From Nymphaea colorata (taxonomy: Eukaryota; Streptophyta; Magnoliopsida; Nymphaeales; Nymphaeaceae), in assembly GCF_008831285.2 (NCBI RefSeq), contig NC_045138.2, forward strand, positions 3,948,143-4,012,142: DNA of 64,000 bases, given 5' to 3'. A program made the position numbers and the translations under genes. Each line of letters opens with the position of its first letter. Positions within the stretch are counted from its first letter, which is position 1. The notes under the pieces were generated by a model. The model searched no databases. It saw nothing but the letters and a program-made list of their open reading frames with translations, and was not told the origin of the DNA. Below, piece after piece: positions 7,079 to 62,362 of the stretch.

Positions 7079-7624
7079 ATATACATATATGTGCACATGA
7101 TTATCTCTCTTTATCTTTATCTTTTTATGATTTAACACATTATTTTCCAAATTTTCATATATGTAAATATGAATATATATATGTGTGTATATTTCTCTCT
7201 CTTTCTCTCTTTCTTTTTTTTCTCTCTCTAGAGTTTCCTTTTTCCCTAAAAATCTTTTTCTCTAAAATCACTCAGCTTTTCTCTTTTTCTAAAATTTTCT
7301 TCTTCCTCTACATTCGATTTGATGTTTCCTTTTGATAAAATTTTCATATATGTATACATACAGTAATCACCCCAAATTTTTTTAAAGGACTATGATGTTT
7401 TATCCAAGTGCGAAATTCAAATTTAGGCACAAGATTTCCAAAATACAACTTTCAGATCCAAATTAAATCCAAAATACAACTTTCAGATCCAAATTAAATC
7501 CAAAATACTACTTTCAGATCCAAATGAAATCCAAAATACTACTCTTAGATCCAAATTAAATCTAAAATACTACTTTCAGATCCAAAACCCAAGTTCAGAT
7601 CCAAATCAATCATTTAAGACTAAT

Positions 7625-8180
7625 TTGCCCTTCCTTTTGACCAAAAACCTCCTTTTAGAGGGTGATTTTAGTCTTTTTGGGAAACAAGACCAATTTGTCT
7701 CTCCTTTTGACCAAAAAAACATCATTTTAGAGGGTGATTTTAGTCTTTTTTTTAAACAAGACCGATTTGCCCCTCCTTTTGACCAAAAAACCTCCTTTTA
7801 GAGGGTGATTTTAGTCTTTTTTTTAAACAAGACCGATTTGCCCCCCCCCCCCTTTGACAAAAAAACCTCCTTTTAGAGGTTGATTTTAGTCTTTTTTGCA
7901 AACAAGACCGATTTGCCCCTCCTTTTGACCAAAAAACCTCTTTTTAGATGGTGATTTTCGTCTTTTTTTTAAACAAGACCGATTTGCCCCCCCTCCCCTT
8001 TGACAAAAAAACCTCCTTTTAGAGATTGATTTTAATTTTTTTGGTAAACAAGACCAATTTGCCCCTCTTTTTGACCAAAAAACATCCTTTTAGAAGGTAA
8101 TTTTAGTCTTTTTAGGTGGACAAGACCCATTTGCAACCAAAAAATCTCCTTTTAGAGGGTGATTTTAGTCTTTTTAGGTC
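7625..8180 (+). repeat. U3 tandem repeats of LTR1, about 72 bases x 8
   Basis: Repeated units carry 'cctccttttagagggtgattttagtc' in pieces: 'acctccttttagagg', 'gtgattttagtcttttt', 'aacaagaccgatttgccc'. The shared phrase recurs near 7,661, 7,732, 7,804, 7,880, 7,950, 8,028, 8,096 and 8,158. The array ends about 50 bases upstream of the TATA box, so it lies where LTR enhancers usually are. Confidence 0.85.
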
Positions 8181-8219
8181 AAAAAAATTCAAATTTTGGA
8201 TTTTGACTCTAAAATCCTC

Positions 8220-8227
8220 TATAAATA
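8220..8227 (+). promoter_or_regulatory. TATA box of LTR1
   Basis: TATAAATA followed by CCCCCC. The same element is found at the same place in the other LTR copies (6,213; 23,367; 29,923; reversed at 56,637). Confidence 0.7.
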
Positions 8228-8569
8228 CCCCCCATATCCTCCCTCTTGGGCAAGATTGGTCTTTGCGAGAAACTCTAGTGTATTTTTACTTGAAGACTTA
8301 GAGTTTCTCTTGAGCTCTCTCTCTCTCCCTCTTCCTCTTTTCATTTCCTTCTCCAACTTAGAGCAAGCTAGAACACTCTTGGAGCTTCATTCAAAAGGGG
8401 ATCGTCAAGTAAAGGTGTTCATCTTTCTTAGGTCATTTCCCATTCGATGTATGTAATCTTCATCCCTCTCATTTCTCTCTTCTTTCTTTTCATTAATATT
8501 CTTATTATTATGCTATCTCTTTTTCTTAAACATAGTCTTGTTGTTGTTTTCATTTTCTCTTCTTATCTT

Positions 8570-9310
8570 CATCTCTCCATGGCCAAAGGAGATAGCACTC
8601 AACCTCTTTTTAGAGACAAGAGGCTATGCTCAAGTGCACCGGAAGTATGAGAAGATGAGATAATATTTTATTTTATGATTAAATCATGCTCTTTCAAGTA
8701 TTCTTGTTGTTCTTGTTTTTTCTCTTTATTAATGTCTTCTTGTTTTTTCTTCTCTTCAATATATTCTTGTTGTTCTTTTCTTTAATAAACATATTTTTGT
8801 TGTTATTGTTATTTCATTTTTTTTCAGTATAGTCTTGTTCTTGTTATTTTCTTTTTTTTTCTTCCTCCTCTTTCCATGACCAAAGGAGATAGCCTTCAAT
8901 CTCTTTTTAGAAACAAGAGGTTATGCTCAAGTGCATTGGGAGCATGAAAAGATGAGAGGATCTTTCATTTCTTGATTGAATCATGCTTTCTCTTTTATTA
9001 AATATAACATTGTTTCTCTTTCTACATTTTCTCTTCATCTTCATCTTCCCATGGCTAAAGAAGGTAGCTTTCAATCTTTTTTTAGAGACAAGAGGCTATA
9101 CTCAAAGTACACCTGGAACATGGAAAGATGAGATGATCTTTCATTTTAATCATGTTCTTTCTTTTCATGAATACATTCTTATTGTTCTTTTGTTTCCTCT
9201 TATTTTCCTCTCTTCATTATTTCTCCATGGCCAAAAGAGATAGCTCTCAATCTCTATTTTAGAGTCAAGAGGTTATACTCAAGTGCACTAGGAACATGAG
9301 AAGATGAGGT
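8570..9310 (+). repeat. Four long repeats in the transcribed part of LTR1
   Basis: Units begin near 8,578, 8,874, 9,050 and 9,226 with CCATGGCCAAAGGAGATAGC or a close variant. They continue with 'tagagacaagaggctatgct' and 'gtgcaccgggagcatg', then pyrimidine-rich filler. Filler length varies, so spacing is irregular (about 175-300 bases). Short peptides starting MAKGDS can be read from them but have no stable frame downstream. Confidence 0.75.
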
Positions 9311-10884
9311 GGTATATAAATTTATAGTTACATAATGTCTTCCCTCCTAATTGAACTTTACTTTTTCTATCATCCTCTTTCTTTCTTTCCTTCCTTGAAT
9401 GTTATCTATATATTATGCATGTATAGTTGTTTGGATCTTTACTTACATGTGAATGTATGGCAGGAATGAGAGTGTGGTTTGGGGACTCTTTATTTTCATA
9501 TTAATTTTTGAGGTTGGGACTTGTCCAACCCGGGATAAACCCTCACGAAAATGTACATGTTAATATGCATTTCCATGTCATTTTGCGCTAATTTCCTTTT
9601 TAATCATCACATTAGGAACCCTAACGAGTGCCTCGTTATGTTGCTTGTTTTCTTCCATACCCAACGGTGGAAGAAATATATCTCTTACAACAAACTAAAT
9701 AATAACATTCTATGCTTATATAAATCATATTTTCTAAAACATTTTCAAAAAGAACTTTCTAACATGGCCTTAGGGACTTAGCTTAGACTCTTGCATGAGT
9801 CCAAGCTCCCCTCTAGCCCACATCAAACTTGAAGTTGGTAATTTTAAGTTGTTCTTTGATTTTTCTAATCTTGTGAAGGTATGGATGTATACACATGTTA
9901 TATACATTTATACCAACATAATGACCCTCATCTTTCTCTCTCTATGCTTTCATTTTCTATTTTATAAATTTTCATATGTGCATGAATACGTATGTACATG
10001 TGTTCCATTTCCTCTCTTTCAAATATTTATTTCTCTTTTCAAGACAAATATCTTCTCTTATAAAATTTCTCATACCCATATATGCGTATGATGTTTTTCT
10101 TTTCCTCTAAAATCTCTCTTTCTCTTCGAATCAATACATCTTTTTCTCTTAAACTTTCATATATGTGTATATGTAATGGTATGTATACATGTATGCATGT
10201 CTTTCTCTATATCTCTCTCTTTCCTTTCATAAGAGTGTTTTATCTCTTGTATTCTTTTTAACATTCTCATCTCATGAACTTTCTATATACCAACTTCAAT
10301 AAGACCACAAACCAAGTAATGACCCAATATTAGAATCATGCTTGATGGTCTACAATCTCTATCCCTTTTCAAAAAATTTTTCCTTCTTATATACAATAAT
10401 TATAACAACGAAATCTTAGATGTATGTTGTGGTAGGAATGACATTAGATGAATGTTGTGGTAGAAATGTTTTACATTTTTTTTAATCATATAGGGTAAAT
10501 GCATCCATGCATTCTCACCCACTTTATTTAACTTATGATCACAAGCACCTCTCCAAAAGAAGGGATGGAGCTCTAGGTAGGTGGTAACCGAATTAGAACA
10601 AAATCTCAAACCTACTTAAAGTCTTAAGAGAACACTAAAGTGATTTCAAAATGATTTCACAAGTTTTTCAAATGATATTTACTAGTTCCACTTTTTCCTC
10701 AAAACATTTCACATTTTTAAGCAATTCTTCAAGAACCTTTTCAAAAGTTTGAAACTTCAAACTTTCAGTATTTTCTACACCGCATATAGAATCAAAAAGA
10801 TGTTTAAGTTAAAACGAGACTTCAAAACAAATGAAAATTTTGGGAGAACTCCAAAACAAATGAAAATTTTGGGATGCAAACAAA

Positions 10885-18962: not shown

Positions 18963-19062
18963 NNNNNNNNNNNNNNNNNNNNNNNNNNNNNNNNNNNNNN
19001 NNNNNNNNNNNNNNNNNNNNNNNNNNNNNNNNNNNNNNNNNNNNNNNNNNNNNNNNNNNNNN
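18963..19062. other. Assembly gap, 100 N
   Basis: Exactly 100 unknown bases, the usual placeholder for a gap of unknown length. It separates the integrase of element 1 from NLR-flanking sequence, so the true distance and even the adjacency of the two sides are unproven. Confidence 0.95.
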
Positions 19063-19235
19063 CTCACCACAGTCCAAATTAGGCAGTAGGCTTAGGGATG
19101 TCAATATATCCGATTTGAATCGGATATCCGACCGATCCGATCCGAAAAAACGGATATGGATAAAAATTTAATATCTGATTAAAAAATCGGATCGGATTCG
19201 GATTTAATAAATGACATCCGATCGGATTCGAATTC
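19063..19235. repeat. Left part of a GGGATGTCAA-type MITE in NLR-flanking sequence, truncated
   Basis: It matches 39,346-39,521 almost base for base: 'ctcaccacagtccaaatta', then TTAGGGATGTCAATATATCC and dense CGGAT/ATCCG words. It stops abruptly at 'ggattcgaattc', where NLR coding sequence begins. The right half of the MITE and everything up to the middle of NB-ARC are missing compared with the intact locus. Confidence 0.8.
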
Positions 19236-21366
19236 CTGCGGCCTCATCTTTCCCTCAATATGGTGACATTCTTCCTGTCTCATGCTGAGCTATGTTGACT
19301 TGCCAGCGTCTTTGAAGAGTTGTTTTGTATATTGTTGCATTTATCCAAAGGATTATGAGATAGAAAGGACTTATTGGCCATGCAATGGGTGGCGCATGGA
19401 TTGATTGAGGAAAAGAAAGGCATGGATGTGGAAGTGACAGCAAACCAATGTATTGATGATTTGATAAATAGGTGCATGACTGAAGAAACTGAAGAAGGGG
19501 ATGTAAAACTGCATGACACTTTGCATGACCTTGCCTCATATATAGGTAGAAAGGAATATAGCCATGCCTCTCCTACTGAGCACACCAGCCATCTGTCATT
19601 GCTTGATGTAGATGATGCAGAACGTCCATGCATAATGTTTCATTAGTAGCAAATAAGTTGCGCACATTGTTCTGTGCATTCTTGCCGTCGGAACAATTCA
19701 CCAACATCAAGTGGTTGAGGGTGTTGTCATTGGAGGAATGTGAAATGGATGAGCTGCCAAATTCCATTGAATGTGTTTCACTACTAAAGTATCTCAATCT
19801 AAGCTATTCAGATGTGAAACGGTTGCCCAGTTCAATCGACAGACTTTGGAACTTGCAAACGTTGGATTTAAGTTATAGTAAAATTGAAGAGGTGCCCGAG
19901 GAAATAGGTAAACTATGCAACTTGAGGTATCTGGGCTGGAAGGTACAGAGGAATTGAAAATTGTAGCCGAAGGCTTGGGGAAGCTTACCAATTTGCAGAC
20001 CTTAAAAAGGTTTCTTTTATGCAATGACAAAGAGGATAGAAGAGGATGTAATATAAGGTACTAAAAGACTTGAACAACCTAACGGGAAAATTGCTCCATA
20101 GAAGGTTTGGGGGCTGCTAGAAAGGAAGTCAATTTAGGAGAAGCCCAATGCTTAAGGAGAAGCATCTTCTAACTGGTTTGAAATTTGACTTTGAGGAACA
20201 ACATGATGACAAAGTTGCTGATGCTTCTGAACAGAGTTGTATACTGGAGGCTTTGGAACCTCCACATTGCCTCAAGAACTTGAAGATACGTCATTATAAA
20301 GGAGAGATGCCAAGTTGGTATTTGAAGACCGACTACACCAAGCTGCGGATATTGAAGCTAGAAAATGCCCTTTATCGGAAAAACTAATAAGCATTACTTC
20401 ATTGGAAAAACTAGAGCTCAATAAATGCCCAGCAGTGTGTGAAATAGCGAGCATGCCTTCTCTCAAATCCTTGAAGATTGGGAGCTGTGATGGACTCAAC
20501 ACAATTGGTCATGACATGCCTGCCTTGAGTCATTGGAGGTGGACGGATGTGGTAGACTAGAGCAAGTAGCTGATGATCACATGCCAGCTTTGAAGATGTT
20601 GAATTGACTAATCTGAAGGCTGTGAAGCAGCTTCCTACTCATCTTCCTTCACTTGAGGTACTGACAGTACAGGATTTGCCCAATTGGGAGGGATGGCCAG
20701 CAATTGGATCGAGGGAAACAACAATTTCTATGCCACGCTTAAGAGAGGCGGGTCTTGAAAATTGTCCAAAGATGCAAACACAAGGCTTGCTTTATGCTCT
20801 ATCCGAGCAGGAGCATGACTATGAGCCTCGGCTCCAAGAATTAAGAGTGTGGGATTGCCCAAGTGCAAGATTGGGATGGAAATTGCTCAAGCAATTGCCT
20901 AACCTCACTGACTTGAGATTGGATAGGGAAGCTTTGGAATCTACACTGCCATCGCCATTGCCATCAGAAGTATCAACGTTTCTACCCTCCCTTGAGCATC
21001 TAACTTTGACAGACGCGAATGTTGATAAGCTAAAATGGGGAAGGGTGCCTGAGTGGGTGTGGGGTCTCTCCCAACTAGATTCATTAGGCCTGCAAGGTTT
21101 CACTGAGGAGATCAGCTTGGGAGGCCACTGGCAGTGTCTACAAGAACTGGTGCGTCTGGAGCTTTATGACTTTCCAATCTCAAGTCCCTGGTGGACATCA
21201 ATAATACTACTTCCCTACAAATGATGCAGTAGCCACAACAAGTCCCACGGATGCAAAGGAACAGCTTGCTTGCCTCTTGAATCTTGAAGACCTAGTTGTT
21301 TCCTGCTGCCCCGCAGTCGATCTGCCGCAAGAATTAAGGACTCTCTTGAGGACAGGTTACACATAG
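19236..21366 (+). pseudogene. Decayed NLR (CC-NB-LRR) gene, 3' half only
   Basis: This is a close relative of the intact gene at 42,549-46,103, aligned from the end of NB-ARC onward. Visible parts are the RNBS-D region ('CCIYPKDYEI' near 19,330), the MHD region ('KLHDTLHDLAS' near 19,505) and LRRs to 21,224. The coiled coil, P-loop, kinase-2 and GLPL motifs are absent. There are stops and frameshifts near 19,645, 19,957, 20,060-20,140, 20,387, 20,560 and 21,224. An LRR stretch present in the intact gene is missing near 20,510. It cannot make a functional NLR. Its 3' flank also matches that of the intact gene to about 21,690. Confidence 0.9.
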
Positions 21367-21753
21367 AAACAGAAAGGGCTTGAGGTGCTGTTGTATCATT
21401 TTGAGGTGCTGTTATATCACGTTCCTGAAATTTTTTAGTTCATTTTAATTGTCTGAAATGTGTGTGGTGTTTAAAATTGAAGACAGGTTGTAACTATTGT
21501 TTAGTTAAATATGAATTTTCGCATTTCATCTGCTCTTTTCTCTCTCTCCCTTGTTCGATTTGGATCTTACAAATTTCTTATGTTATGTTTTCCGTGTCCA
21601 AAAGTAGAGAAAATGCGTAAAAATCAATAGATTGCAACTGTTGTCAGCAAATGTGTCTGAAGTTGGAGAGTGTGCTTCTTTGTTTTTTTCTCAGCAATCC
21701 TTAATGATGGATTGGTTAGATGGCTGGATGAGTCCCACAACCGAGAATTACCA

Positions 21754-29233: not shown

Positions 29234-29237
29234 CATC

Positions 29238-38853: not shown

Positions 38854-39370
38854 ATGACATAAAGTGTTGGGTATAAGGGATTGGACTTATTTTGATCTCA
38901 ATTATTAGCTTGGTTTACCTACCAAGTTATCTTAAGATAGAAGAGAGAAATGAGAGATTTTAATAGACAAATAGAAGAGAGAGATATAGTCTAATGAAAG
39001 AGAGGGAAAAAGAGACTATAAGAGAAGGACAAATTGAAGAGTAAGAGATGAATAAAAGAGAGGCAAAATGATTTTTCGAGAGAAAGAGAAAGAGAAAAAA
39101 AAAATTAAAGGAGAGAGATAAATTGAAGAAAATAGAAAGAGATATTTTAAGAGAGAAATTGAAAAGAGATCCACCTGAATAAAAAAAAAAAGAGTGGAGA
39201 TCACCTGCAGGTTGTTTTGGGGATTCTCATTTGAATAAGTATGCTTCATAGGGATCATGCATCCAAACTTGAGAAAGGAGAAGTCTTGGTGATGTAGAAG
39301 ATTAGGGTTGGGGGATTTTTCCAGGCCTGTAGAGCACATGTGCTCACCACAGTCCAAATTAGCAGTGGGC

Positions 39371-39800
39371 TTAGGGATGTCAATATATCCAATTTGAATC
39401 GGATATCCGACCGATCCGATCCGAAAAAAACGGATATGGATAAAAATTTAATATCTGATTGAAAAATCGGATCGGATTCGGATTTAATAAATGACATCCG
39501 ATTGGATTCGGATTCGAATTCGGATATACATGAATATCGGATCGGATTCAGTTTTAGAAAAATATCCTCTATCTAATACTTGAAAAATGGCAAAATTCGG
39601 TTCAAAATTCGGATTCGGATTCAGATATAAAGATAAAAATCGGATTCGGATTGTAAAATCGGATTTCGGATTCGGATTCGGATATGACTTTGCTTTGTTC
39701 GAATTCGAATTCGAATCCGAATCCGAATATATGACTATCCGAAAAAACGGATATGGTTGAAGATGTATCCGATCCGAATCCGATCCGTTGACATCCCTAA
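39371..39800. mobile_element. Palindrome-rich MITE with GGGATGTCAA ends
   Basis: TTAGGGATGTCAA at 39,371-39,383 is the exact reverse complement of 39,788-39,800. The 430-base interior is built almost wholly of CGGAT, ATCCG, CGAAT and ATTCG words, so it can fold on itself in many registers. There is no coding capacity. A 5'-truncated partner is at 19,091-19,235. The target-site duplication may be TA. The transposase family that mobilised it is not known to me. Confidence 0.7.
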
Positions 39801-42469: not shown

Positions 42470-42548
42470 GCTCTTTGCCTTTCTTCCTCGACACTTGAGA
42501 ATTGCTTCCCTTCCTCTTGCTCTTCTACCTGTTGAGAGACTAGGGAAA

Positions 42549-45500
42549 ATGGCAATAGTAATCGACACACTTGCAGAAACAGCTATTTCGAGTCTGTTGG
42601 GGGCTGTAACCAGTTTGATGAAAGAAAAGATGGACCTCATCTTGAATGCTAAAGACGAACTCAAGTATCTCCAAAGGAAGCTGGAACACTTGCAGAAGGC
42701 CCTCAAAGATGCAGATTGCAAGCCCTTTTTTAGCAATGAGCGCAACAGGGATCTGGAGGGAAAGCTGAAGGACATTGTTTATGATGCCCAGGACATCATC
42801 GAAGAATACCAAACCATAATAGATCTCAGCAAAAGGCAGAGGGGTTCTGTATCTTCGTGGAACAAGGTAAGAAAACCATGGATCACTCTTTGCTCTTGCT
42901 TTAAGGAACATGTATCTGCTTCCTACCAACTTGGAAATGAAATTAAAAACATCAATCAAAGGCTTGATGACATAGAAAAAGATAGTAAAATGGTGGATTT
43001 GCTCAACACAACACCGCAAGAGAGTAGGGGTGAGGGCTCTATTGGTGGTAAACATGACAATCCTCGAGAGACAACCCATCATATAGGTACTGCACAACCA
43101 CTCATAGGCAGGGCAGACGATAAGGAGAAAGTGAAAGCACTCTTGTTTGATGGCTCTATGGAGAGTAGCGTGCTAGGAAAACATGGTGTTTCTATTGTAT
43201 CCATTGTAGGCCAAGGCGGAGTAGGGAAAACTACTCTTGCAAAAATGGTCTTTAAGGAAGTAGAAGAACAATTTGGGAAACACAGGTGGTGGGTTTATGT
43301 TTCAGAGAAGCCAAACCGTACATGTTTGCTGCAAAAAATACTAAAGGAAGTATGCAAGATGTCGGAAAGAGAAGTTGAGGGTATTACTTCCTTGAGTGAG
43401 TTGTGCACACAATTACAGAGTGAACTCTCAAACAGCAAGTTTTTTTTGGTCTTAGATGATGTATGGGAATTAGGTTGGTGGGAGGGAGAGGTAGAGAACA
43501 CCTTGAGGGGAGGTGCAAAGGAGAGCAAAATTTTGATCACCAGTAGAAAGGTAGAAGTCTCTCAAGGGATTGGTGCTAAAATGCATAAATTGCCAGAAAT
43601 GACTTTCGATGAAAGTTGGAGATTGTTTCTGGATGTGTCATTGAAAGAAGAAAATGAGTTGGTAAGTCGCAATTTGAAAGGTATTGGGCAGAGGATAGTG
43701 GGCAAGTGTGGTGGTTTGCCGCTTGTTGTCCGGACCGTAGGGTCCTTAATGCGTACAAAAACAATGACGAAAGATGACTGGAAAAGCGTTGAGAAAAGCG
43801 AGATATGGGAATGGAAGATGCCCGCCTCATCGTCATCCTCTGAAATATGTGGTCGCATTCTTCCTGGTCTCATGTTGAGTTACGATGACTTGCCATATTA
43901 TTTGAAGAATTGTTTTGTATATTGCTGTATTTATCCAAAGGATTGTGAGATAAAAAGAGATAGATTGGTCATGCAATGGATGGCACACGGATTGATTGAT
44001 CAAAAGAAAGGCATTGATGTGGAAGTGACAGCAAATCAATGTATTGATGATTTGATAAATAAGTGCATGATTGAAGAAACTGAAGAAGGGGATGTAAAAA
44101 TGCATGACATTTTGCATGACCTTGCCTCCTATATAGGTGGAAATGAATATAGTCATGCCTCTCCTACTGCACACACCCGCCATTTGTCAATATTTGCTGT
44201 AGACAATGTAGAAGCAACCATGCGTAATGCTTCAGCGGTAGCAAATAAGTCACGGACATTGTTGAGTGGATCCTTGCCTATGGTACAGTTCACCAATTTC
44301 AAGTGGATGAGGGTGTTGTCATTGATGAAATGTCATATACATGAACTACCAAACTCCATTGAAAACCTGTCACTTCTAAAATATCTTGATCTAAGCTTTT
44401 CTGGTGTGAGACAGTTGCCCAATTCAATCGGTAAACTCTGGAACCTGCAAACATTGAATTTAAACCATAGTGAAATTGAAGAGCTGCCCAATGAAATGGG
44501 AGAACTCTCCAACTTGAGGTATCTTGGGCTTGAACATACAACACGTTTGAATTTTATAGCCGAAGGCTTGGGGAAGCTTACCAATTTACGGACCTTAAAA
44601 AGGTTTCTTGTATGTGATGACAAAGGGGACATAAGAGGATGCAATATTAGGGAACTGAAAGACTTGAATAAACTAAAGGGACATTTGTCAGTAGAAGGTT
44701 TGGACGGGGGAAGGGTGAAAGTAATTGATGCAAAGGACGCACATCTTAAGGAGAAGCACGAGCTAACTGGTGTGGAATTAGACTTCAAGGTGGGAAAAAA
44801 TGACGTAGTGGGCAGTGCTTCAGAACAGAAGTGTTTGCTGGAGGCTTTGGAACCTCCACATGGCATAGAGAGCTTGGCAATTTGTGATTATAAAGGTGAA
44901 AGGCCTATGTGGTATTTGGACACCAACTATGTGGAGCTGCAGACATTACGGCTGCAATGTTGCCCATTGTGGGCAACAGTGATAGGAATTAAATCACTGG
45001 AAAAGTTGGAGGTCAACACCTGCCCTACACTGTGCGAATTGCCGAGCATGCCCATGCTAAAGTCCTTGAAAATTCGGAGCTGTGATGGACTCAACACAAT
45101 CGGTGACTTGCCCAACTTGGACTGGTTGCAGGTGGAAGGATGTGGCAGCCTAGAACAATTATCTCATGGCATGCCTGCTCTCAAGTGGTTGGATGTGTAT
45201 GGATGTTATAAGTTGAAGACTCTCGCTAACATGCCTGCCTTGGAGTGGTTGGAGGTGAGATATTGTGAGAGGTTAGAGCAAGTAGCTGATGTTCGCATGC
45301 CAGATTTAAAGAGGCTGTGGTTGTCTAATCTGAACACTCTGAAGCAGCTCCCTGCTCACCTTCCTTCACTCGAGGATCTGAGAGCATGGGATTTGCTCAA
45401 CTGGGAAGGATGGCCAGCAGCTGGATCAAAGGAATTAGCAACAGAAACTTTTATGCCATGCTTAAGAGAGGTGGAATTTCAGAACTGTCCAAAGATGCAG

Positions 45501-46103
45501 ACACAAGGCTTGATTTATGCTCTATCCGAGCTGCCGGGGCATGACGGTCAAGCGACTCGGCTTCGTGCCCTGACAGTATTGAATTGCCCAAATGCAAGAT
45601 TGGAGTGGAAATTGCTTCAGCACCTGCCCAACCTCAATCTGATGCTATTGGATGGGGCAGCTATGGAATCAACGCTGTCATTGCCATCAGATCAGCTATC
45701 AACATTTCTACCCTCCCTCAAGGATCTAACTTTGATAGACTCGAGGGTTGAAGAGCTCAAATGGGGAAGGGTGCCTGAATGGGTGTGGGTTCTCTCCCAA
45801 CTGGAGGAATTGCACCTACAAGGTTTTACCGAGGACATCAGTTTGGGAGGCCACTGGCAATGCCTCCCGAAACTGAGACGATTATCTCTTAAAGGCTTCC
45901 TAAATCTTAAGTCTCTAGTGGACGTCAATGATGTAACTCCCCAACAAAATGATGCAGCAGCAACATTGCCTATGGATGCAAGGCAACAGATTGCCTGCCT
46001 CTCGAAGCTTGAAGATTTGACAATTTACAGATCATGTCCTGCACTCCATGTGCCGCAGCACTTAAAGGACTGCCTCGGGGAAAGGTTAGAGGATAGGAGA
46101 TGA
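42549..46103 (+). CDS. NLR immune receptor, CC-NB-ARC-LRR (CNL/RGA type)
   Basis: One uninterrupted exon of 1,184 codons. I chose ATG 42,549 (MAIVIDTLAETAISSLL) over the in-frame ATG 18 codons upstream because the Rx-type coiled coil starts there and the homologous start is kept at 54,018. The coiled coil is about residues 1-150, with an EDVID-like 'VYDAQDIIEEY' near 77. NB-ARC has P-loop GQGGVGKTT (221-229), kinase-2 'LVLDDVW' (about 300, with the Trp typical of CNLs), RNBS-B 'KILITSR' (about 327), 'GGLPL' (about 387), RNBS-D 'CFVYCCIYPKD' (about 455) and 'MHD' (about 518). LRRs run from about 560 to the end. NLRs sense pathogen effectors inside the cell and trigger defence. All key motifs are present, so it may be functional. 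Its closest relatives here are the pseudogenes at 19,236 and 54,018. Confidence 0.93.
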   Translation: MAIVIDTLAETAISSLLGAVTSLMKEKMDLILNAKDELKYLQRKLEHLQKALKDADCKPFFSNERNRDLEGKLKDIVYDAQDIIEEYQTIIDLSKRQRGSVSSWNKVRKPWITLCSCFKEHVSASYQLGNEIKNINQRLDDIEKDSKMVDLLNTTPQESRGEGSIGGKHDNPRETTHHIGTAQPLIGRADDKEKVKALLFDGSMESSVLGKHGVSIVSIVGQGGVGKTTLAKMVFKEVEEQFGKHRWWVYVSEKPNRTCLLQKILKEVCKMSEREVEGITSLSELCTQLQSELSNSKFFLVLDDVWELGWWEGEVENTLRGGAKESKILITSRKVEVSQGIGAKMHKLPEMTFDESWRLFLDVSLKEENELVSRNLKGIGQRIVGKCGGLPLVVRTVGSLMRTKTMTKDDWKSVEKSEIWEWKMPASSSSSEICGRILPGLMLSYDDLPYYLKNCFVYCCIYPKDCEIKRDRLVMQWMAHGLIDQKKGIDVEVTANQCIDDLINKCMIEETEEGDVKMHDILHDLASYIGGNEYSHASPTAHTRHLSIFAVDNVEATMRNASAVANKSRTLLSGSLPMVQFTNFKWMRVLSLMKCHIHELPNSIENLSLLKYLDLSFSGVRQLPNSIGKLWNLQTLNLNHSEIEELPNEMGELSNLRYLGLEHTTRLNFIAEGLGKLTNLRTLKRFLVCDDKGDIRGCNIRELKDLNKLKGHLSVEGLDGGRVKVIDAKDAHLKEKHELTGVELDFKVGKNDVVGSASEQKCLLEALEPPHGIESLAICDYKGERPMWYLDTNYVELQTLRLQCCPLWATVIGIKSLEKLEVNTCPTLCELPSMPMLKSLKIRSCDGLNTIGDLPNLDWLQVEGCGSLEQLSHGMPALKWLDVYGCYKLKTLANMPALEWLEVRYCERLEQVADVRMPDLKRLWLSNLNTLKQLPAHLPSLEDLRAWDLLNWEGWPAAGSKELATETFMPCLREVEFQNCPKMQTQGLIYALSELPGHDGQATRLRALTVLNCPNARLEWKLLQHLPNLNLMLLDGAAMESTLSLPSDQLSTFLPSLKDLTLIDSRVEELKWGRVPEWVWVLSQLEELHLQGFTEDISLGGHWQCLPKLRRLSLKGFLNLKSLVDVNDVTPQQNDAAATLPMDARQQIACLSKLEDLTIYRSCPALHVPQHLKDCLGERLEDRR

Positions 46104-53559: not shown

Positions 53560-53971
53560 AGTAGACTGGGGTTGAGGGACTTTTCCTGACTTATTTAGCA
53601 GCAATATGGATCTTACCAGCCTGTGAAGCATATGTGCTCACCACACTCCAAATTAAGCACTCGGCAGTTTAAGCTCCCAATCCGCTCCGGTGCGTTCATT
53701 CTTTCTTGTAAAATGGGCAACTAGAAATGAAAGAAAGCTGAAGGAGGACAATGGCTGTACGTTAAACTTCATGGGATTATCCTTTCTTATAAAATGGGCA
53801 ACTAGAAATTGAAGAAAGAGGGATTATTCTTTCTTATAAAATCGGCAACTAGAAATTAAAGAAAGAGGGATTATTCTTTCTTATAAAATCGGCAACTAGA
53901 AATTAAGGACAGAGGGAGACCTATTGTATTTGTTCTCTTTCTCTCTCTCTCTCTCACACACACACACACTT
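53560..53971 (+). repeat. NLR upstream sequence with expanded 48-base repeats
   Basis: 'gactggggttgagggactttt', 'ttagcagcaatatgg', 'ccagcctgtgaagcatatgtg' and 'ctcaccacactccaaatta' match upstream sequence of the intact NLR locus (39,285-39,365). Three tandem units of 47-48 bases start at 53,774, 53,821 and 53,869 ('ttctttcttataaaatcggc', 'aactagaaattaaagaaaga'). A fourth stands apart at 53,699. The intact locus has one such unit near 39,839. Confidence 0.7.
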
Positions 53972-54056
53972 GAAAATTGCTCCTCTTCCTCTTCCACCTA
54001 CTGAAAAACCAGGGAAGATGGCAATAGTAATCGATGCACTTACAGAAACAACCGAG
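53972..54056 (+). pseudogene. 5' end of a third NLR copy, cut after 13 codons
   Basis: The leader and ATG (54,018) match the intact gene at 42,500-42,600: 'MAIVIDALTETTE' against 'MAIVIDTLAETAISS'. After GAG at 54,056 the homology stops and retrotransposon LTR sequence in reverse orientation begins, giving an immediate TGA. No other part of this copy follows. Confidence 0.8.
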
Positions 54057-54173
54057 TGAGATGAGAGTGTTAAAAAGAATATAAAAGATTGGGTCATTAC
54101 TTGGTTTGTGGTCTTATTGAAGTTGGTATATAGAACTTCATGAGATGAGAGTGTTAAAAAGAATATAAAAGAT
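54057..54173. repeat. 33-base direct repeat at the broken end of the reversed LTR
   Basis: TGAGATGAGAGTGTTAAAAA plus 13 more bases at 54,057-54,089 are repeated exactly at 54,141-54,173. The second copy is in its normal LTR place. The first is an extra copy used as filler between NLR sequence and the LTR. Confidence 0.9.
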
Positions 54174-55379
54174 AAAACACTCTTATGAAAGGAAAGAGAG
54201 AGATATAGAGAAAGACATGCATACATGTGTACATACCATCACATATACACATATATGAAAGTTTAAGAGAAAAAGATGTATTGATTCGAAGAGAAAGAGA
54301 GATTTTAGAGGAAAAGAAAAAATATCATACGCATATATGGGCATGAGAAATTTTATAAGAGAAGATATTTGTCTTGAAAAGAGGAATAAATATTTGAAAG
54401 AGAGGAAATTGAGCACATGTACATACGTATTCATGCACATATGAAAATTTATAAAATAGAAAATGAAAGCATAGAGAGAGAAAGATGGGGGTCATCATGT
54501 TGGCATAAATGTATATAACATGTGTATACATCCATACCTTCACAAGATTAGAAAAATCAAGGAACAACTTAAAATTACCAACTTCAAATTTAATGTGGGC
54601 CGGAGGGGAGCTTGGACTCATGCAAGAGTCTAAGCTAAGTCCCTAAGGCCATGTTAGAAGGTTCTTTTTGAAAATGTTTTGGAAAATATGATTTATATAA
54701 GCATAGAATGTTATTATTTGGTTTGTTGTAAGGGATATATTTCTTCCACCGTTGGGTATAGAAGAAAACAAGCAACATAACGAGGCACTCGTTAGGGTTC
54801 CTAATGTGATGATTAAGAAGGAAACTAGCGCAAAATGATATGGAAATGCATATTAACATGTACATTTTTGTGAGGGTTTATCTCGGGTTGGACAAGTTCC
54901 AACCTCAAAGATTAATATGAAAATAAAGAGTCCCCAAACCACACTCTTATTCCCAACATGCATTCACATGTAAGTAAAGAACCAAGTAACTATGCATGCA
55001 TAATATATAGATAACTTTCAAGGAAGGAAAGAAAGAAAGAGGATGATGAAAAAAGCAAAGTTCAATTAGGAGGGAAGACATGATGTAACTATGAATTGAT
55101 ATACCACCTCATTTTCTCATGTTCTCGGTGCACTTGAGTATAGCCTCTTGACTCTAAAATAGAGATTGAGAGCTATCTCTTTTGGCCATGGAGAAATGAG
55201 GAAGAGAGGAAAATAAGAGGAAACAAAAGAACAATAAGAATGTATTCATGAAAAGAAAGAACATGATTAAAATAAAAGATCATCTCATCTTTCCATGTTC
55301 CCGGTGTACTTGAGCATAGCCTCTTGTCTCTAAAAAGAGATTGATGGCTATCTCCTTTGGTCATGGGAAGAGGAAAAAG

Positions 55380-56115
55380 AGAAAAAAAAAATAACAAGAA
55401 CAAGACTATATTGAAGAAATGAAATAACAATAACAACAAAAATATATTCATTAAGGAAAAGAATAACAACAACAAGACTATATTGAAGAAATGAAATAAC
55501 AATAACAATAAAAATATATTCATTAAGAAAAAGAATAACAAGAACAAGACTATATTGAAGAAATGAAATAACAATAACAACAAAAATATATTCATTAAGG
55601 AAAAGAATAACAACAACAAGAATATATTGAAGAGAAGAAAGAGCAATAAGATATTGATAAAGAGAAAGAACAAGAACAACAAGAATACTTGAAAGAGCAT
55701 GATTTAATCAGGAAACAAAAGAACAATAAGAATGTATTCATGAAAAGAAAAACATGATTAAAATGAAAGATCATCTCATCTTTCCAAGTTCCTGGTGTAC
55801 TTGAGCATAGCCTCTTGTCTCTAAAAAGAGATTGATGGCTATCTCCTTTGGTCATGAGAAGAGAAAAAAAAAATAACAAGAACAAGACTATATTGAAGAA
55901 ATGAAATAACAATAACAACAAAAATATATTCATTAAGGAAAAGAATAACAACAACATGACTATATTGAAGAAATGAAATAACAATAACAACAAAAATATA
56001 TTCATTAAGGAAAAAAATAACAAGAACAAGACTATATTGAAGAAATGAAATAACAATAACAACAAAAATATATTCATTAAGGAAAAGAATAACAACAACA
56101 AGAATATATTGAAGA
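55380..56115 (-). repeat. Expanded AT-rich repeats of about 72 bases in the reversed LTR
   Basis: 'actatattgaagaaatgaaa', 'taacaataacaacaaaaata' and 'tattcattaaggaaaagaat' repeat about four times at 55,385-55,640 and again at 55,875-56,115. They are much less expanded in LTR1 (8,700-8,860). Confidence 0.8.
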
Positions 56116-56636
56116 GAAGAAAGAGTAAGAAGATATTGATAAAGAGAAAAGAACACGAACAACAAAAATACTTGAAAGAGCATGATTTAATCATAAAATA
56201 AAATATAATCTCATCTTCTCATGCTCCCGGTGCATTTGAGCATAGCCTCTTGTCTCTAAAAAGAGGTTGAGTGCTATCTCCTTTGGCCATGGGGAGATGA
56301 AGATGTGAAGAAAAAATGAAAACAACAACAAGACTATATTTAAGAAAAAGAAATAACATAATAATAAGAATATTAATGAAAAGAAAGAAGAGAGAAATGA
56401 GAGGGATGAAGATTACATACCTCTAATGGGAAATGACCTAAGAAAGATGAACGCCTTCACTTGAAGAACCCCTTTTGAATGAAGCTCCAAGAGTGATTGC
56501 TCTAAGGTGGAGAAGGAAATGGAAAGAGGAAGAGGGAGAGAGAGAGAGCTCAAGAGAAACTCTAAGTCTTCAAGTGAGAATACACTAGAGTTTCTCCCAA
56601 TGACCAATCTTGTCCAAGAGGGAGGACATCGGGGGA

Positions 56637-56644
56637 TATTTATA
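56637..56644 (-). promoter_or_regulatory. TATA box of the reversed LTR
   Basis: TATAAATA on the minus strand. Transcription from it would run leftward, toward and antisense to the NLR 5' fragment at 53,972. Confidence 0.6.
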
Positions 56645-57403
56645 GAGGATTTTTGAGCCAAAACCCAAAATTTGAATTTTTTGACCTAAAAAGACTAAAA
56701 TCACTCTCCAAAAGAAGATTTTTTTTGCCAAAAGAAAGGGAAAATGAGTCTTGACCACCCAAAAAGACTAAAACTACCCTCTAAAAGGATGTTTTTTGGT
56801 CAAAAGGAGGGGTAAGTTGGTCTTGTTTACCAAAAAGACTAAAATCACTCTCTAAAAGAAGGTTTTTTGGTAAAAAAGAGGGGCAAATCAGTCTTGTTTA
56901 AAAAAGACTAAAATCACCCTCTAAAAGGAGGTTTTTTGGTCAAAAAGAGGGGCAAATCGGTCTTGTTTAAAAAAAGACTAAAATCACCGTTTAAAAAGAG
57001 GTTTTTGGTCAAAAGGAGGGGCAAATCGGTCTTGTTTGCCCAAAAAGACTAAAATCACCCTCTAAAAGGAGGTTTTTGGTCAAAAGGATGGGCAAATCGG
57101 TCTTGTTTGCCCAAAAAGACTAAAATCATCCTCTAAAAGGAGGTTTTTGATCAAAAGAAAGGGCAAATTAGTCTTAAATGATTGATTTGGATCTGAACTT
57201 GGGTTTTAGATCTAAAAGTAGTATTTTGGATTTAATTTGGATCTGAAAATTTTATTTTGAATTTAATTTGGATCTGAGAGTAGTATTTTGGATTTAATTT
57301 GGATCTGAAAGTAGTATTTTGGAAATCTTGTGTTTAAATTTGAATTTCGCACTTGGATAAAACATCATAGTCCTTTGGAAAAATTTGGGGTGATTATAGA
57401 AGA

Positions 57404-57422
57404 TGGCGACTGTGATGGGACC
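57404..57422 (+). other. Primer binding site of element 2
   Basis: TGGCGACTGTGATGGGACC. It differs at one or two places from the sites at 10,885 and 25,601. Five bases (57,399-57,403) separate it from the reversed LTR. Confidence 0.7.
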
Positions 57423-58203
57423 CGTCATCGTTTGGCTATGATTATTGATGCATTTTCACTAATTTGAACATCTCATGTATTGCCAATGATAAAACATGTC
57501 CCCTATTTTGGTCTCGACCCCATTGGCATTTCATTATATTGTTTGATGATTGTGAATGTTTTCTTGCACATAGGACTAATTGAGAAGGATCAATCATGTT
57601 CACACATATTTATGATCACATACCACCCTTCTCAATTTAGGAGTTGTTTGAAAGCCATGTTTGCTCTTTTATTTTAATCTTCAAACTTAGGCAACATTGC
57701 ATTAGAGACAACTCAATTTATATGATTTCTCATATTTCAAAATTCCTCATACCTATTTGTCCCGGTCATCATGTTGCCGGGCTTGGTCTTTGGCGGTAGC
57801 ACAAGACTAAGCCTTACAACTAGACCACACCTTGGGCGGAAACGCCCCCTCGTTAGTACCATGAGTGGTAATTTATGGTATATCGACGAGTGATCAAGAA
57901 GAAGTTGATGAACTCTACCCTTAGTTGCGTAAGGAAGAATCTATGCTCGTACTAAGCCATTTGGCTAAGGTATATAAGCATAACTTGATATCGGATTACC
58001 GTGACACAAAATTATCTCAATTAGGTTCCTATACCAAATTTTCTAAAAAAAAAGAAAATTATTTCATGATAGATGTTGATGTGCGTGAAACCTTATGTGA
58101 TGATTTGCAACCTCATTCCACACATCTACCTCATATTGTCTTTGTCAACCTAGTCAATGTTTTCCACTAATTCAATTTTTATCTTTTAGAGTCATCATTC
58201 AAG
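57423..58203 (+). other. Untranslated leader of element 2
   Basis: It matches 10,904-11,691. A 64-codon frame from ATG 57,486 is the same length as in element 1. A frame at 57,925-58,170 lies in phase with ORF1 but is closed by TAA at 58,168. Confidence 0.6.
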
Positions 58204-59424
58204 ATATATTCTTTCCAACGTGGTGTCACATTCCCTTATGATCACATCCTCTTTGGGGAAGGTCCCGAACGGTCCACCTACATTTCTCTTGAGTCTCAAC
58301 CTTTGGCTCCCGAATGGTATCGGACTTGGCATCCCACCTTCTCTCGGATGTTTCTTTCTTACTTTGAAGAATGTGGGCTAGAGACAGTGGCAGCTGGAGG
58401 AATGCAGTCAGTTGATAGAAATTTGGTACATGCAATCGCCGAGCATTGGAACCCAAGGACCTCCTTTTTTTGGTTTTCATGGGGAGAAATGACAATATTA
58501 CTAGATGAATTTGTCGAAATACTAGACCTCCCTACCCCAACTTGTGACCCAAATGATCTATTGGAAAAACAATTCCTTATGAACCCAACCAAGGTCAATG
58601 CAAATGACCTCATTGCTCACTTTACTGGACGGAAAACTTGGCCTTTAGTGGAAAACCATGAAAATCAAAGCATTAACATGAAAAATTTGTAAGAAGAATT
58701 TGGAACCTATGTTGAACCTTCTACCCTACCTCGAAAAGCCATAGGGAGAATTAAACATTGTATGATGCTCTGCACAGTAGGAGTGACCCTTTTTACCGAT
58801 GGAAGTGACCTTTTAGATGTCCGTATTGCCCAACTTTTTCGAGTATGGGGGCATAGAGGGACCCGACACTTGTCAGTAGCAATGACAGCCTTAGCCTTCC
58901 TCTACCGAGGACTCACCCGCTTTACCATTGGAGGTATCGACTTCATAGAAGGATGCACATATGCTTTACAATTGTGGTTCCTCAAGCATGCGGGACCCCA
59001 AGCCAGTCTATTTAGAAACACTGATGGATCATTGACAACCTTGGAGCAATACCATCGTTTGATCGAGCAATTGAATGAAGGAGAGATCATTTGGGATTAT
59101 TGTGATCGTCGGCAGAGCCTACCCCGATACACTCACCATCATCATGGGCGTACCACACTCTTGGGCCCTCACTTCATAGTTGATTATTGTGCTGATAGAT
59201 GTATGAGACAGTTCTCTCAAAGGCAGAAGATGGTCTCTGTGCATGCACCAATTGGAGCTATTCCCGAATTTGACCTTAGTTCTCCTCAATGGACAGCATT
59301 GTTTGCAGTAGCTCGACAAGAATGGAAGACACAAATGTCATACACTTGGTTCATAGGCCCAGTGGTGAAGAAGGAATATGCTGAGTGGTGGGATGCCAAC
59401 CGACCACCATCCTTCCTTCCCTAA
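58204..59424 (+). pseudogene. ORF1 of element 2, plant-mobile-domain-like protein, near-intact
   Basis: One frame of about 407 codons, open from 58,171 to the TAA ending at 59,424 apart from one internal TAA at 58,690. Element 1 has TAT at that site. The codon that is ATG in element 1 (11,692) is ATA here (58,204), so the copy also lacks its likely start. Motifs: 'FFWFSWGEMTILLDEFVEIL', 'TGRKTWPL', 'GTRHLSVAMTALAFLYRGL', 'GGIDFIEGCTYALQLWFLKH' and a C-terminal 'EYAEWWDANRPP'. The GE-x-T-x-LD-x3-IL-LP pattern and the Trp-rich helices fit the plant mobile domain. A role in transposition is unknown. Confidence 0.72.
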
Positions 59425-59596: not shown

Positions 59597-62362
59597 ATGG
59601 TTGAAACTAGATCGCAAGCTAAGCAGACTCCTCAAAATGAGGCTTCATCCTCTAAACTCCGTCCAGAAACACTTGGCCTCCCAGCAATCGAGCCAGAAGC
59701 TTACTATATGTTCCGTTTGTTCATGGAGCGATTCATGAAAGAGCAAGAAGAGCAAAAGGCCTTGATGGTTACTCCAGAACCTGATAATGAAAAGACTGCC
59801 AAGCAAAAAAGAAAAAAGAAAAACAAGTATTTTGTTGAAAATCAGGATGAAGACTATTTGGGTTCAGATTCGGCAACTAGTAAAGAAGAAAAACCCGAAC
59901 TGTTTTCTCTCAAAAAGAAAAAGACAACAAAGAAAAATAAAAAGGAAAAAGATGTTATGATAGAAAACAGCTCACCCAATCCTATCACCACTGAAAGTTC
60001 GGAAGAGAAGCCCAAAAGGAAGAGAAAACCTAACAAAAAAGTCAAAAAGACAAAGAAATACATCACTAGCAACAGCTCAGACAGTGAGAGTTCTGAAGAA
60101 AAAGTAAAGGAGATCAAGGGCAAGAAGAAAAAGACCAAGCCAGAATTGATCGAATCAAGTGATGATGAAAGTCCGACTAAGCGCAGATTCTATGAAATGG
60201 AGAAAAGAATGAACAATCTTGAGCTTAGGGGAAAGGGAAAACGTTCATACTCATGTGAGGACTACTACCTTGGCATTAAAGGGGACGAAGACGTGAAAGG
60301 CTTGCCCAGAGAATTCATCAGATATGATGGAACCACTTGTCCACACGTTCATCTTTCAACATTTTTCAATGATTGCTACAAAATTCGAACAAATAACAGA
60401 GCTTTGTTCCGATATTTTCCAAGAAGCCTTGAAGGCATTGCCGCACAATGGTATAAAGAAAATATCAATCCGATCGAGCTGAAGGAGTTTGACAAGTTGA
60501 TTAACATGTTTGTTGAAAGATTTGAATAAAATGCTCCCATGGCTCCAACCCTCAGTACCATTTGCAGTCTTCGTCAGAAACAGGGAGAAAAGGCTCGAGA
60601 ATTCATCCAAAAATGGAGAATTCAATGCAATAAGATGAAGGAGCCCATTTCTGAGACACAAGCCTTGTCACTCATTAGGAAAAATCTTGCCCAACCCTTG
60701 AAAAGTCTCATCCGCAATGCCCCGATCAAAACCTTTGCTGAGTTAATTGAATAAGCAAACTCGATAGAAGAAGGGATTGAGGAAGGAGATTTTGATGGAA
60801 TTATTGCTCCTAAGTACAAAGAAGATGAAAAGAAAGGAGGAAGGACACAACTGCCTGCACAATTCATAGCCAATGCTGGCATTAGAAAGGACCATGATAA
60901 TAACTACAAGCATGACAAGGGAGTCAGTTTCAAGAAGAACACACAGTTTCTCAAAGGCGACGACGAAAGGAAAAACAAACACCCAGGTTGGAGCTACGAC
61001 CAGAAATTCACTCCTTTGAGCCAGTCTCGGGAGAAGATCCTTGAATACCTTCTCGCCAAAGGAACTATCGTCTTGTCAAAAATATCAGAGCCTCCGAAAA
61101 TGATGGGAGGAAATAAAGAAAAACTGTGCAAGTTTCATCGTACCCCTGGTCATGACACTAAGGATTGTTTTGTCCTCAAAAATATTATTCAAGACTTCAT
61201 CAACAAAGATCTCAAGATTTGTGATGATAGTACCCCTGAGATATTAAGGAATCCATTCCCTGACCACGGGAAGGCGGCAATAGCCATGATCACTACAGGC
61301 ACTCCACTTCCGTACCACCCACAAGAGCACATTCGACCTTATATTGGGAGCAGCTCACACAAAGTCATGGTGGTAGACCAAGGTAAGGAACCTCTAGATT
61401 TCATTGCTATGATGAATGGCAGGATAGAAAGTTTGCCCAAGAAACTTCTTATGATTCCAAAGACTTTTATCTTACAAGGCGACGAATCATCAAATGACTC
61501 CTCAGATGAAGATCCACGCTATTTGGACGTTCTCCCCTTGGAAGAGCGTATGGATGAGGGAGACTCGATTCAAGCTTCTAAAAATCAGTCAATTACCTTC
61601 TCAGAAAAAGACCTCTCAAAATGGGGATATTTCCATGAAGATGCTCTTTACATCGTCGTTCAGGTCAATGGGATGACGGTGCCACATGTTTTGATTGATG
61701 GAGTAAGTGGTTTGAATATTTGTTCTTATCTCACGGCTAAAACATTGGGGTTTCGTGAAAACAAATATCGTTCTGATAATACCAAGATATACGGATACGA
61801 TGACCGAGGCATGAACAGCAAAGGTACCCTCGACATGAATGTGATCATTGAAAATACTAGCCATTGCATTGTATTTCATGTGGTAGATGTACCACCATCA
61901 TACAACCTGTTTTTGGGACGACCTTGGATCCATCAAGTACGAGGAATCCCATCCACTCTTCATCAATGCCTGAAATGGAATTTTGGTACATCAGTCATCA
62001 CTGTCCGTGCTGAGGATCCGGTCGAGAGGTTGATGCAACCTATGCTCCCTAGGCCAATTGATCCGGTAGATGTATCGAGCATAAGAACAACAAATGACAG
62101 ACCTTTGAAAGAATGGATGCAGAACATGGAGATAGGGGAACCATTCGGGAATGCTTATACTATTTCAAGCAATCGTGCAAGTTATCAAGAACACCTATTG
62201 TATGTTCATTTCATGAAAAACCCCAAGGGTTTTCAGTTACTTCTGAAAGGTGGCTACCGTCCATTCACTGGCCTTGGGAAAAATGAAGATGGCATCTTGC
62301 AACCGATTAGCATCTCTTTTCAAATGAACATGAGAGGACTGGGATATCATGAAGGAATTTGA
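59597..62362 (+). pseudogene. gag-pro polyprotein of element 2, two in-frame stops
   Basis: A single frame of 921 codons from ATG 59,597 to TGA 62,360, broken only by TAA at 60,527 and TAA at 60,752. Element 1 reads CAA and CAG there. The order is a Lys/Glu/Ser-rich N-terminus (residues about 50-220, nuclear-localisation-like 'KPKRKRKP'), capsid domain ('SLEGIAAQWYKENI'), 'SLRQKQGEKAREFIQKWR', zinc-knuckle-like CKFHRTPGHDTKDC, and aspartic protease ('VLIDGVSGLNI', with the Asp kept but the Gly-Ser context altered). 'LFLGRPWIHQVRGIP' and a G-patch-like 'GGYRPFTGLGKNEDGIL' end follow. Capsid and protease of a Ty3/gypsy element. Confidence 0.88.

What the first reader, a model, noticed from the sequence alone, without database searches (positions are those of the whole stretch)
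54057..57404. A reversed LTR ends five bases from the primer binding site of a forward retroelement
In a normal element the forward LTR ends two bases before the primer binding site, as at 10,882/10,885 and 25,598/25,601. Here the LTR lies in the opposite orientation, and its U3 start (57,398) stands at the primer binding site (57,404). At its other end about 555 bases of U5 are missing. Such an element could not complete normal reverse transcription. The cause could be an inversion of the LTR, joining of two opposed elements, or misassembly of two similar copies. The near-exact join at a functional boundary is surprising for a random breakpoint.
Basis: partly seen in the sequence, partly recalled or inferred. 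Interest (0 to 1): 0.7.

Follow-up and report, generated by a model that had tools for sequence, protein, structure and literature searches.

The report
Retroelement whose first LTR is backwards
A plant mobile element of a known type sits inside a broken disease-resistance gene with its own first terminal repeat turned around and joined to the site where copying normally starts; this looks like a one-off copying or repair accident.

Summary
The junction is real in the assembly: reversed LTR to 57,398, GAAGA at 57,399-57,403, primer binding site (PBS) from 57,404, no gap. An exact-letter pattern scan of the 408-Mb genome found this arrangement only here. All 39 other family places fetched have a forward LTR before the PBS. 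The forward element continues past the window to a forward 3' LTR (L009:2527-5809). The reversed LTR is most likely the element's own: among the best-scored places only it and that 3' LTR carry one deletion scar, and the two are sisters in a tree (support 0.755), split at about insertion age. The spacer reads as GA (reverse complement of the TC between polypurine tract and U3) plus AGA (last U5 base and two bases before the PBS); strict autointegration predicts ACAGA. The left end is a microhomology join (AGAA) at codon 10 of a second NLR gene; about 411 bases of U5 (not 555) and about 1.36 kb of NLR are missing. Best reading: a single defective Ogre-like copy made by mis-joining a U3 end to the PBS at or near insertion. 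Known class, unusual example.

The parts
53560..54047 (+). Upstream region and first 10 codons of a second NLR gene, cut by the retroelement (ATG at 54,018)
   Evidence: 53966-54050 is 80% identical to the start of the intact NLR; 53560-54053 matches other NLR starts in the genome, best 89%; codon comparison; ATG position
54044..54047 (.). AGAA: exact microhomology between NLR paralogues and the LTR at the left join (8 of 10 letters over 54044-54053)
54048..54089 (-). Scar of the LTR: short filler (ACAACCGAG on the + strand) and a 33-nt copy of 54141-54173; in the own 3' LTR 50 bases stand where most family copies have about 262
54044..57398 (-). Reversed LTR of the forward element, U3 start at 57,398 (TA where most family copies have TG), last ~411 bases of U5 missing
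57399..57403 (+). GAAGA spacer: GA = reverse complement of TC of PPT-TC-TG; AGA = last U5 base plus the two bases before the PBS
57404..57420 (+). Primer binding site of the forward element (Ogre-type; that the sequence fits tRNA-Arg is recalled)
   Evidence: Ogre PBS type from a passage of PMC9289625
57404..64000 (+). Internal part of the forward Ogre-like element: plant mobile domain ORFs (58171-59421), G-patch (60755-62359), RT/RNase H (62871-); goes on outside the window to the PPT and a forward 3' LTR at L009:2527-5809 (window coordinate = 64000 + L009 position)

Best explanation
Anatomy (shown): one Ogre-like Ty3/gypsy copy inside an NLR gene, with a forward 3' LTR and a second LTR, most likely its own, reversed and joined by its U3 end to the PBS. 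Mechanism (inferred): the join was made at the cDNA stage or around insertion. The U3 terminus of a linear cDNA, still carrying the two bases next to the polypurine tract, was joined or template-jumped to a minus-strand end copied three bases past the PBS, instead of a correct second strand transfer. The product would have U5 at both outer ends. The right LTR end is intact to its last base. The left end lost about 411 bases of U5, and the NLR about 1.36 kb, and these ends were joined through AGAA microhomology, either at insertion or later. The copy has no forward LTR promoter and no forward R-U5 before its PBS, so it should be dead for normal retrotransposition.
For: Spacer: GAAGA is one of 5 of 1024 five-mers that can be written as a prefix of the PPT-side flank plus a suffix of the U5/PBS side. 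The PPT-side TC precedes the own 3' LTR and 8 of 9 fetched 3' LTR candidates. The U5 side is ACAGA in 37 and ATAGA in 2 of 39 other copies. Own LTR: of 40 scored places (1566 candidates) only the reversed LTR and the own 3' LTR match through the scar; (40 of 1110 scored) again only these two carry it. Timing: private substitutions shared 1, reversed-only 7, 3'LTR-only 7 against 44 others, so the two split at about insertion, like ordinary LTR pairs; K2P 0.019-0.023. The 3' LTR ends at its normal last base. The exact arrangement occurs once in the genome, as expected of an accident.
Against: The five-base fit (about 0.5% by chance) was counted after seeing it. A join at integrated-DNA level is not excluded. 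Sister support of the two LTRs is weak (0.755). The left truncation falls within ~13 bases of the scar, an unexplained coincidence. The right LTR is followed by 46 bases that are not NLR before NLR homology resumes, so a clean integrase insertion into the NLR is not shown; no target site duplication can be shown because the left one is lost. A scar in both LTRs and in no other scored place needs it to be born in the same reverse transcription, an unsampled or lost parent, or LTR-to-LTR copying.
Confidence: 0.5

Rival explanations
1. Break repair soon after insertion: the element inserted normally; a double-strand break removed the 5' LTR and ~1.36 kb of NLR; the PBS-side end switched by CATCT microhomology to the PPT/U3 boundary of the own 3' LTR, copied that LTR, and was joined to the NLR through AGAA.
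For: Explains the PPT-derived TC, the shared scar and the NLR deletion in one event; CATCTGT is shared by both boundaries; templated insertions and microhomology are usual in polymerase-theta end joining in Arabidopsis (PMC10923293 passages).
Against: Only 1 shared private substitution against 7 and 7, so the copying would have to follow insertion very soon. A clean microhomology switch would give three bases fewer than seen.
Confidence: 0.18
2. Plain inversion of the own 5' LTR in the chromosome by two or three breaks and end joining.
For: Simple; the reversed LTR behaves as an ordinary LTR partner in the tree; the left side shows microhomology and deletion.
Against: Needs breaks exactly at the LTR start and at the U5/PBS edge; if the 3' flank ACAAC is the target duplication, host bases kept next to the reversed U3 should read GT, not GA.
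Confidence: 0.15
3. Integrase-made autointegration: the U3 end attacked the element's own DNA next to the PBS, giving an inverted LTR with a 5-base target duplication.
For: Inverted two-LTR circles are a described autointegration product (PMC4751563 and PMC2644782 passages); the spacer is 5 bases long.
Against: The target bases should read ACAGA (37 of 39 other copies, ATAGA in 2); GAAGA differs at 2 of 5 from ACAGA, including the C of the terminal CA. In an inverted circle the right end would join the inverted segment, whereas here it is followed by other DNA and NLR.
Confidence: 0.07
4. Two opposed elements: a reverse element inserted at the PBS of a forward one, then deletion.
For: Several LTR elements of both orientations lie in and next to the window.
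Against: The nearest scored relative of the reversed LTR is the 3' LTR of the same element and both carry the scar.
Confidence: 0.05
5. Misassembly of two copies.
For: Repeats 3.3 kb long, and a scaffold gap elsewhere in the window.
Against: The junction has a spacer not seen in the 39 other copies read and no gap; both sides appear to belong to one element.
Confidence: 0.05

Closest known systems
Ogre lineage (Tat group) of plant Ty3/gypsy retrotransposons
   Same: Plant mobile domain ORF, long LTRs, PBS of the Ogre type (recalled), RT/RNase H; PMC6317226 reports the domain in 57% of Ogre elements, and 5-bp target duplications in 93.4% of the elements that its passage covers (passages)
   Different: This copy has its first LTR reversed and truncated
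Inverted two-LTR circles from autointegration (retroviruses, Ty1)
   Same: An LTR turned round and joined by its U3 end to internal DNA (passages of PMC4751563, PMC2644782; the U3 detail is established knowledge)
   Different: Chromosomal and linear here, right end not joined to the inverted part, spacer not a copy of the family target bases
Microhomology end joining and T-DNA capture in plants
   Same: Microhomology join with host deletion on the left (PMC10923293 passages)
   Different: No experimental DNA; the filler first suspected here is part of the LTR, since the 3' LTR has it too

Membership tests
Ogre lineage element | Plant mobile domain in the extra ORF before gag | tested here: met
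   PF10536 E 7.3e-8 (32.4 bits, below the curated cut-off 34.9) and 6.9e-9 (35.8 bits, above it) in two adjacent ORFs
Ogre lineage element | RT phylogeny within Ogre | not tested
   No RT tree was made
Ogre lineage element | PBS complementary to tRNA-Arg | tested here: inconclusive
   Sequence recalled as Ogre type; no tRNA gene was found in the window and none was aligned
Complete LTR element with two direct LTRs | Two LTRs in the same orientation | tested here: not met
   3' LTR forward, the other reversed
Autointegration product | Short duplication of the target at the joined end | tested here: not met
   GAAGA here; ACAGA in 37 and ATAGA in 2 of 39 other copies. The pre-event sequence of this very copy is not known
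Autointegration product | Other LTR end joined to the inverted segment | tested here: not met
   Right end is followed by 46 bases of unknown origin and then NLR
Normal integrase insertion | 5-bp target duplication on both sides | tested here: inconclusive
   Right flank ACAAC; left flank lost. Two other family insertions show matching flanks (CCCAG in L047/L057; CATAT in L053/L054)

The most novel reading that the evidence does not exclude
A fossil of a mis-aimed second strand transfer: reverse transcriptase ran off the PBS end of one template and jumped to the unprocessed U3 terminus of another cDNA, making an element with inverted LTRs and two U5 ends that was still inserted. If so, inverted-LTR copies are a rare but readable record of reverse transcription errors in plants.
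Probability: 0.3. Interest if true: 0.5.

Novelty: new member of a known kind. Interest (0 to 1): 0.3.

Why it matters
It shows how an LTR copy can be born or made defective by a join that lands exactly at reverse-transcription boundaries, and that these boundaries carry inverted microhomology that may make such joins likely. It also documents the breaking of an NLR resistance gene. Annotation that expects two direct LTRs could misread such a copy (inference). It is one case; no exact recurrence was found in this genome.

Tried and rejected
Filler at the left break: the 33-nt direct copy at 54057-54089 first looked like a templated filler of the break; the own 3' LTR also has it, so it belongs to the LTR. 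NLR origin of the bases after AGAA was tested with 10 NLR paralogues and the intact gene: the 10 paralogues read AGAAGCAGCC and the intact gene AGAAACAGCT, so AGAA is the stretch that all share exactly with the LTR. Mirror arrangement (PPT followed by reversed U5): 8 matches in the genome; 3 were read and none showed this family's LTR or PPT; 5 were not read. Literature: 8 searches listed papers on autointegration but I saw none on a reversed LTR at a PBS; I saw listings and, for six papers, passages only (PMC6317226, PMC9289625, PMC2644782, PMC4751563, PMC10923293, PMC9694575). One search returned nothing. Garfinkel 2006 is not held. Not obtained: a count of normal LTR/PBS joins for the whole genome (and later, 130), head-to-head U3-U3 joins (and later), and the origin of the 46 bases (and later); these did not complete.

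Full report
What is there. The window is plant-like DNA: an open CC-NB-LRR resistance gene frame at 42,471-46,100, NLR fragments, and long LTR retroelements whose ORFs carry a plant mobile domain, G-patch, RT and RNase H. It lies at C1:3948143-4012142 of a 408-Mb genome in 783 contigs. The junction named in the finding is present as written: reversed U3 start at 57,398, GAAGA, PBS from 57,404. There is no N near it.

The rest of the element. The two stretches right of the window (L009, L010) show that the internal part goes on to a polypurine tract AACAAAGAGGGGCA, the bases TC, and a forward 3' LTR from L009:2527 to 5809 that ends in TAACA. So the element has a forward 3' LTR and a reversed LTR at its other end. 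After 46 bases of unknown origin (L009:5810-5855) NLR homology resumes at about L009:5856, at the position equivalent to 43,945 of the intact gene. On the left, 53,966-54,050 matches 42,491-42,581 of that gene; the ATG is at 54,018. About 1.36 kb of NLR between these points is absent.

Left end. The own 3' LTR shows that the reversed LTR runs to 54,044-54,056, not to 54,085, so about 411-414 bases of U5 are missing (L009:5396-5809), not 555. Ten NLR paralogues read share AGAA exactly and 8 of 10 letters over 54,044-54,053 with the LTR at this place. This is a microhomology join with loss on both sides.

Whose LTR it is. The reversed LTR and the own 3' LTR share a scar: in the 3' LTR 50 bases stand where the element at 7,364 has 252 and most other copies about 262, among them a 33-nt copy of nearby LTR sequence and about 10 further bases. 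In one search, 4 of 39 copies could not be measured for want of an anchor. Of 40 scored places (1566 candidates), these two matched the query to its end and the other 38 stopped at position 1292 or 1296 of 1337. A query centred on the scar gave only these two as carriers, and 38 other places that match from 46 or 47 on (40 of 1110 candidates scored). K2P distance is 0.023 over 2870 sites and 0.019 over 1311 sites, against 0.06-0.09 between either and the element at 7,364. For the tree, 51 candidates were given, 3 were dropped for a short match and 3 as identical duplicates; with the reversed LTR this left 46. The reversed LTR and the own 3' LTR are sisters with weak support (0.755) and branches of about 0.012 and 0.011; private substitutions shared 1, reversed LTR only 7, 3' LTR only 7. 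So they behave like the two LTRs of one insertion. A late copy of one from the other should have left more shared changes.

The spacer. The 39 other places were fetched with their LTR side. All 39 have forward U5 before the PBS; the last five bases are ACAGA in 37 and ATAGA in 2 (in L026 one search had picked a second PBS, and the one also reads ACAGA). In the window ACAAA and ACAGA occur. At 3' LTRs the U3 is preceded by TC in 8 of 9 fetched places and in the own copy; the ninth shows another flank. GAAGA is then GA (reverse complement of TC) plus A-GA. Five of 1024 five-mers would fit such a two-sided reading. An integrase target duplication should read ACAGA. The reversed U3 begins TA; a start was found in 32 of the 39 copies and all 32 begin TG, but the LTR at 29,237 of the window also begins TA, so the change may be plain decay. 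That it kept integrase from processing this end is possible and untested.

Why at a functional boundary. The reverse complement of U5/PBS and the PPT/U3 boundary, taken from two family copies, share CATCTGT and 20 of 26 letters; the inner 20 letters match at 14 (shuffle p 0.0007). A cDNA terminus also lies exactly at PPT/U3 (established knowledge). Either fact reduces the need for two random breaks to hit functional points.

How often. Reversed U3 followed within 20 bases by the PBS occurs once in 408 Mb with exact letters. Copies with substitutions in the 19 fixed letters would be missed, and the count of normal joins with a comparable pattern did not complete, so the rate has no denominator beyond the 39 copies read. 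In one search, which scored 40 of 745 candidates, no other place matched the whole query; some matched from 20-odd bases inside the reversed side at 90-92%, which is the shared end similarity described above.

How it most likely works. Shown: anatomy, shared scar, microhomology on the left, spacer letters. Inferred: a mis-join of an unprocessed U3 end to a PBS end during or near reverse transcription or insertion. Rivals are early repair by inverted copying of the 3' LTR, plain chromosomal inversion, autointegration, two elements, and misassembly, with the odds given. Papers, seen as passages, support the existence of inverted-LTR autointegration circles (PMC4751563, PMC2644782), of microhomology and templated end joining in Arabidopsis (PMC10923293) and the Ogre traits (PMC6317226, PMC9289625). 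Against the cDNA view, the abstract of PMC4751563 reports no signs of end joining or autointegration at the junctions of its yeast Ty circles, though one passage mentions a single read consistent with autointegration. That RNase H can leave a few U5 bases and that reverse transcriptases jump end to end is recalled knowledge.

Verdict. A defective Ogre-like copy with a reversed LTR that is most likely its own. It is a good example of retroelement mis-joining, not a new kind of system.

Noticed in passing
window 42471-46100: Open CC-NB-LRR (Rx_N, NB-ARC, LRR) resistance gene frame of 1210 codons; related NLR starts lie at C1:4035408 and other places.
   Followed up: partly
window 18963-19235: A 100-N gap is followed at once by 173 bases 96% like 39343-39515 and then an NLR 3' fragment (19258-21673): a chimeric start that may be gap-edge misassembly.
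   Followed up: no
window 54044-54056 and L009:5386-5398: The truncation of the reversed LTR falls within ~13 bases of the scar shared with the 3' LTR; no model here explains that coincidence.
   Followed up: partly
L009:5810-5855: 46 bases of unknown origin between the 3' LTR end and resumed NLR homology; in the window and loci L001-L074 only matches of up to 13 letters were seen in the part of the answer shown.
   Followed up: partly
window 10819-10874: 29-bp tandem duplication at the U5 end of the element at 7364-10882, whose 5' LTR also lacks the first TG.
   Followed up: no
window 58171-59421: Plant mobile domain region of the forward element is split into two open stretches by a stop.
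   Followed up: no
L048 (G000:C5:8542000-8546800): An LTR with PPT upstream and PBS downstream, as in tandem elements sharing one LTR.
   Followed up: no
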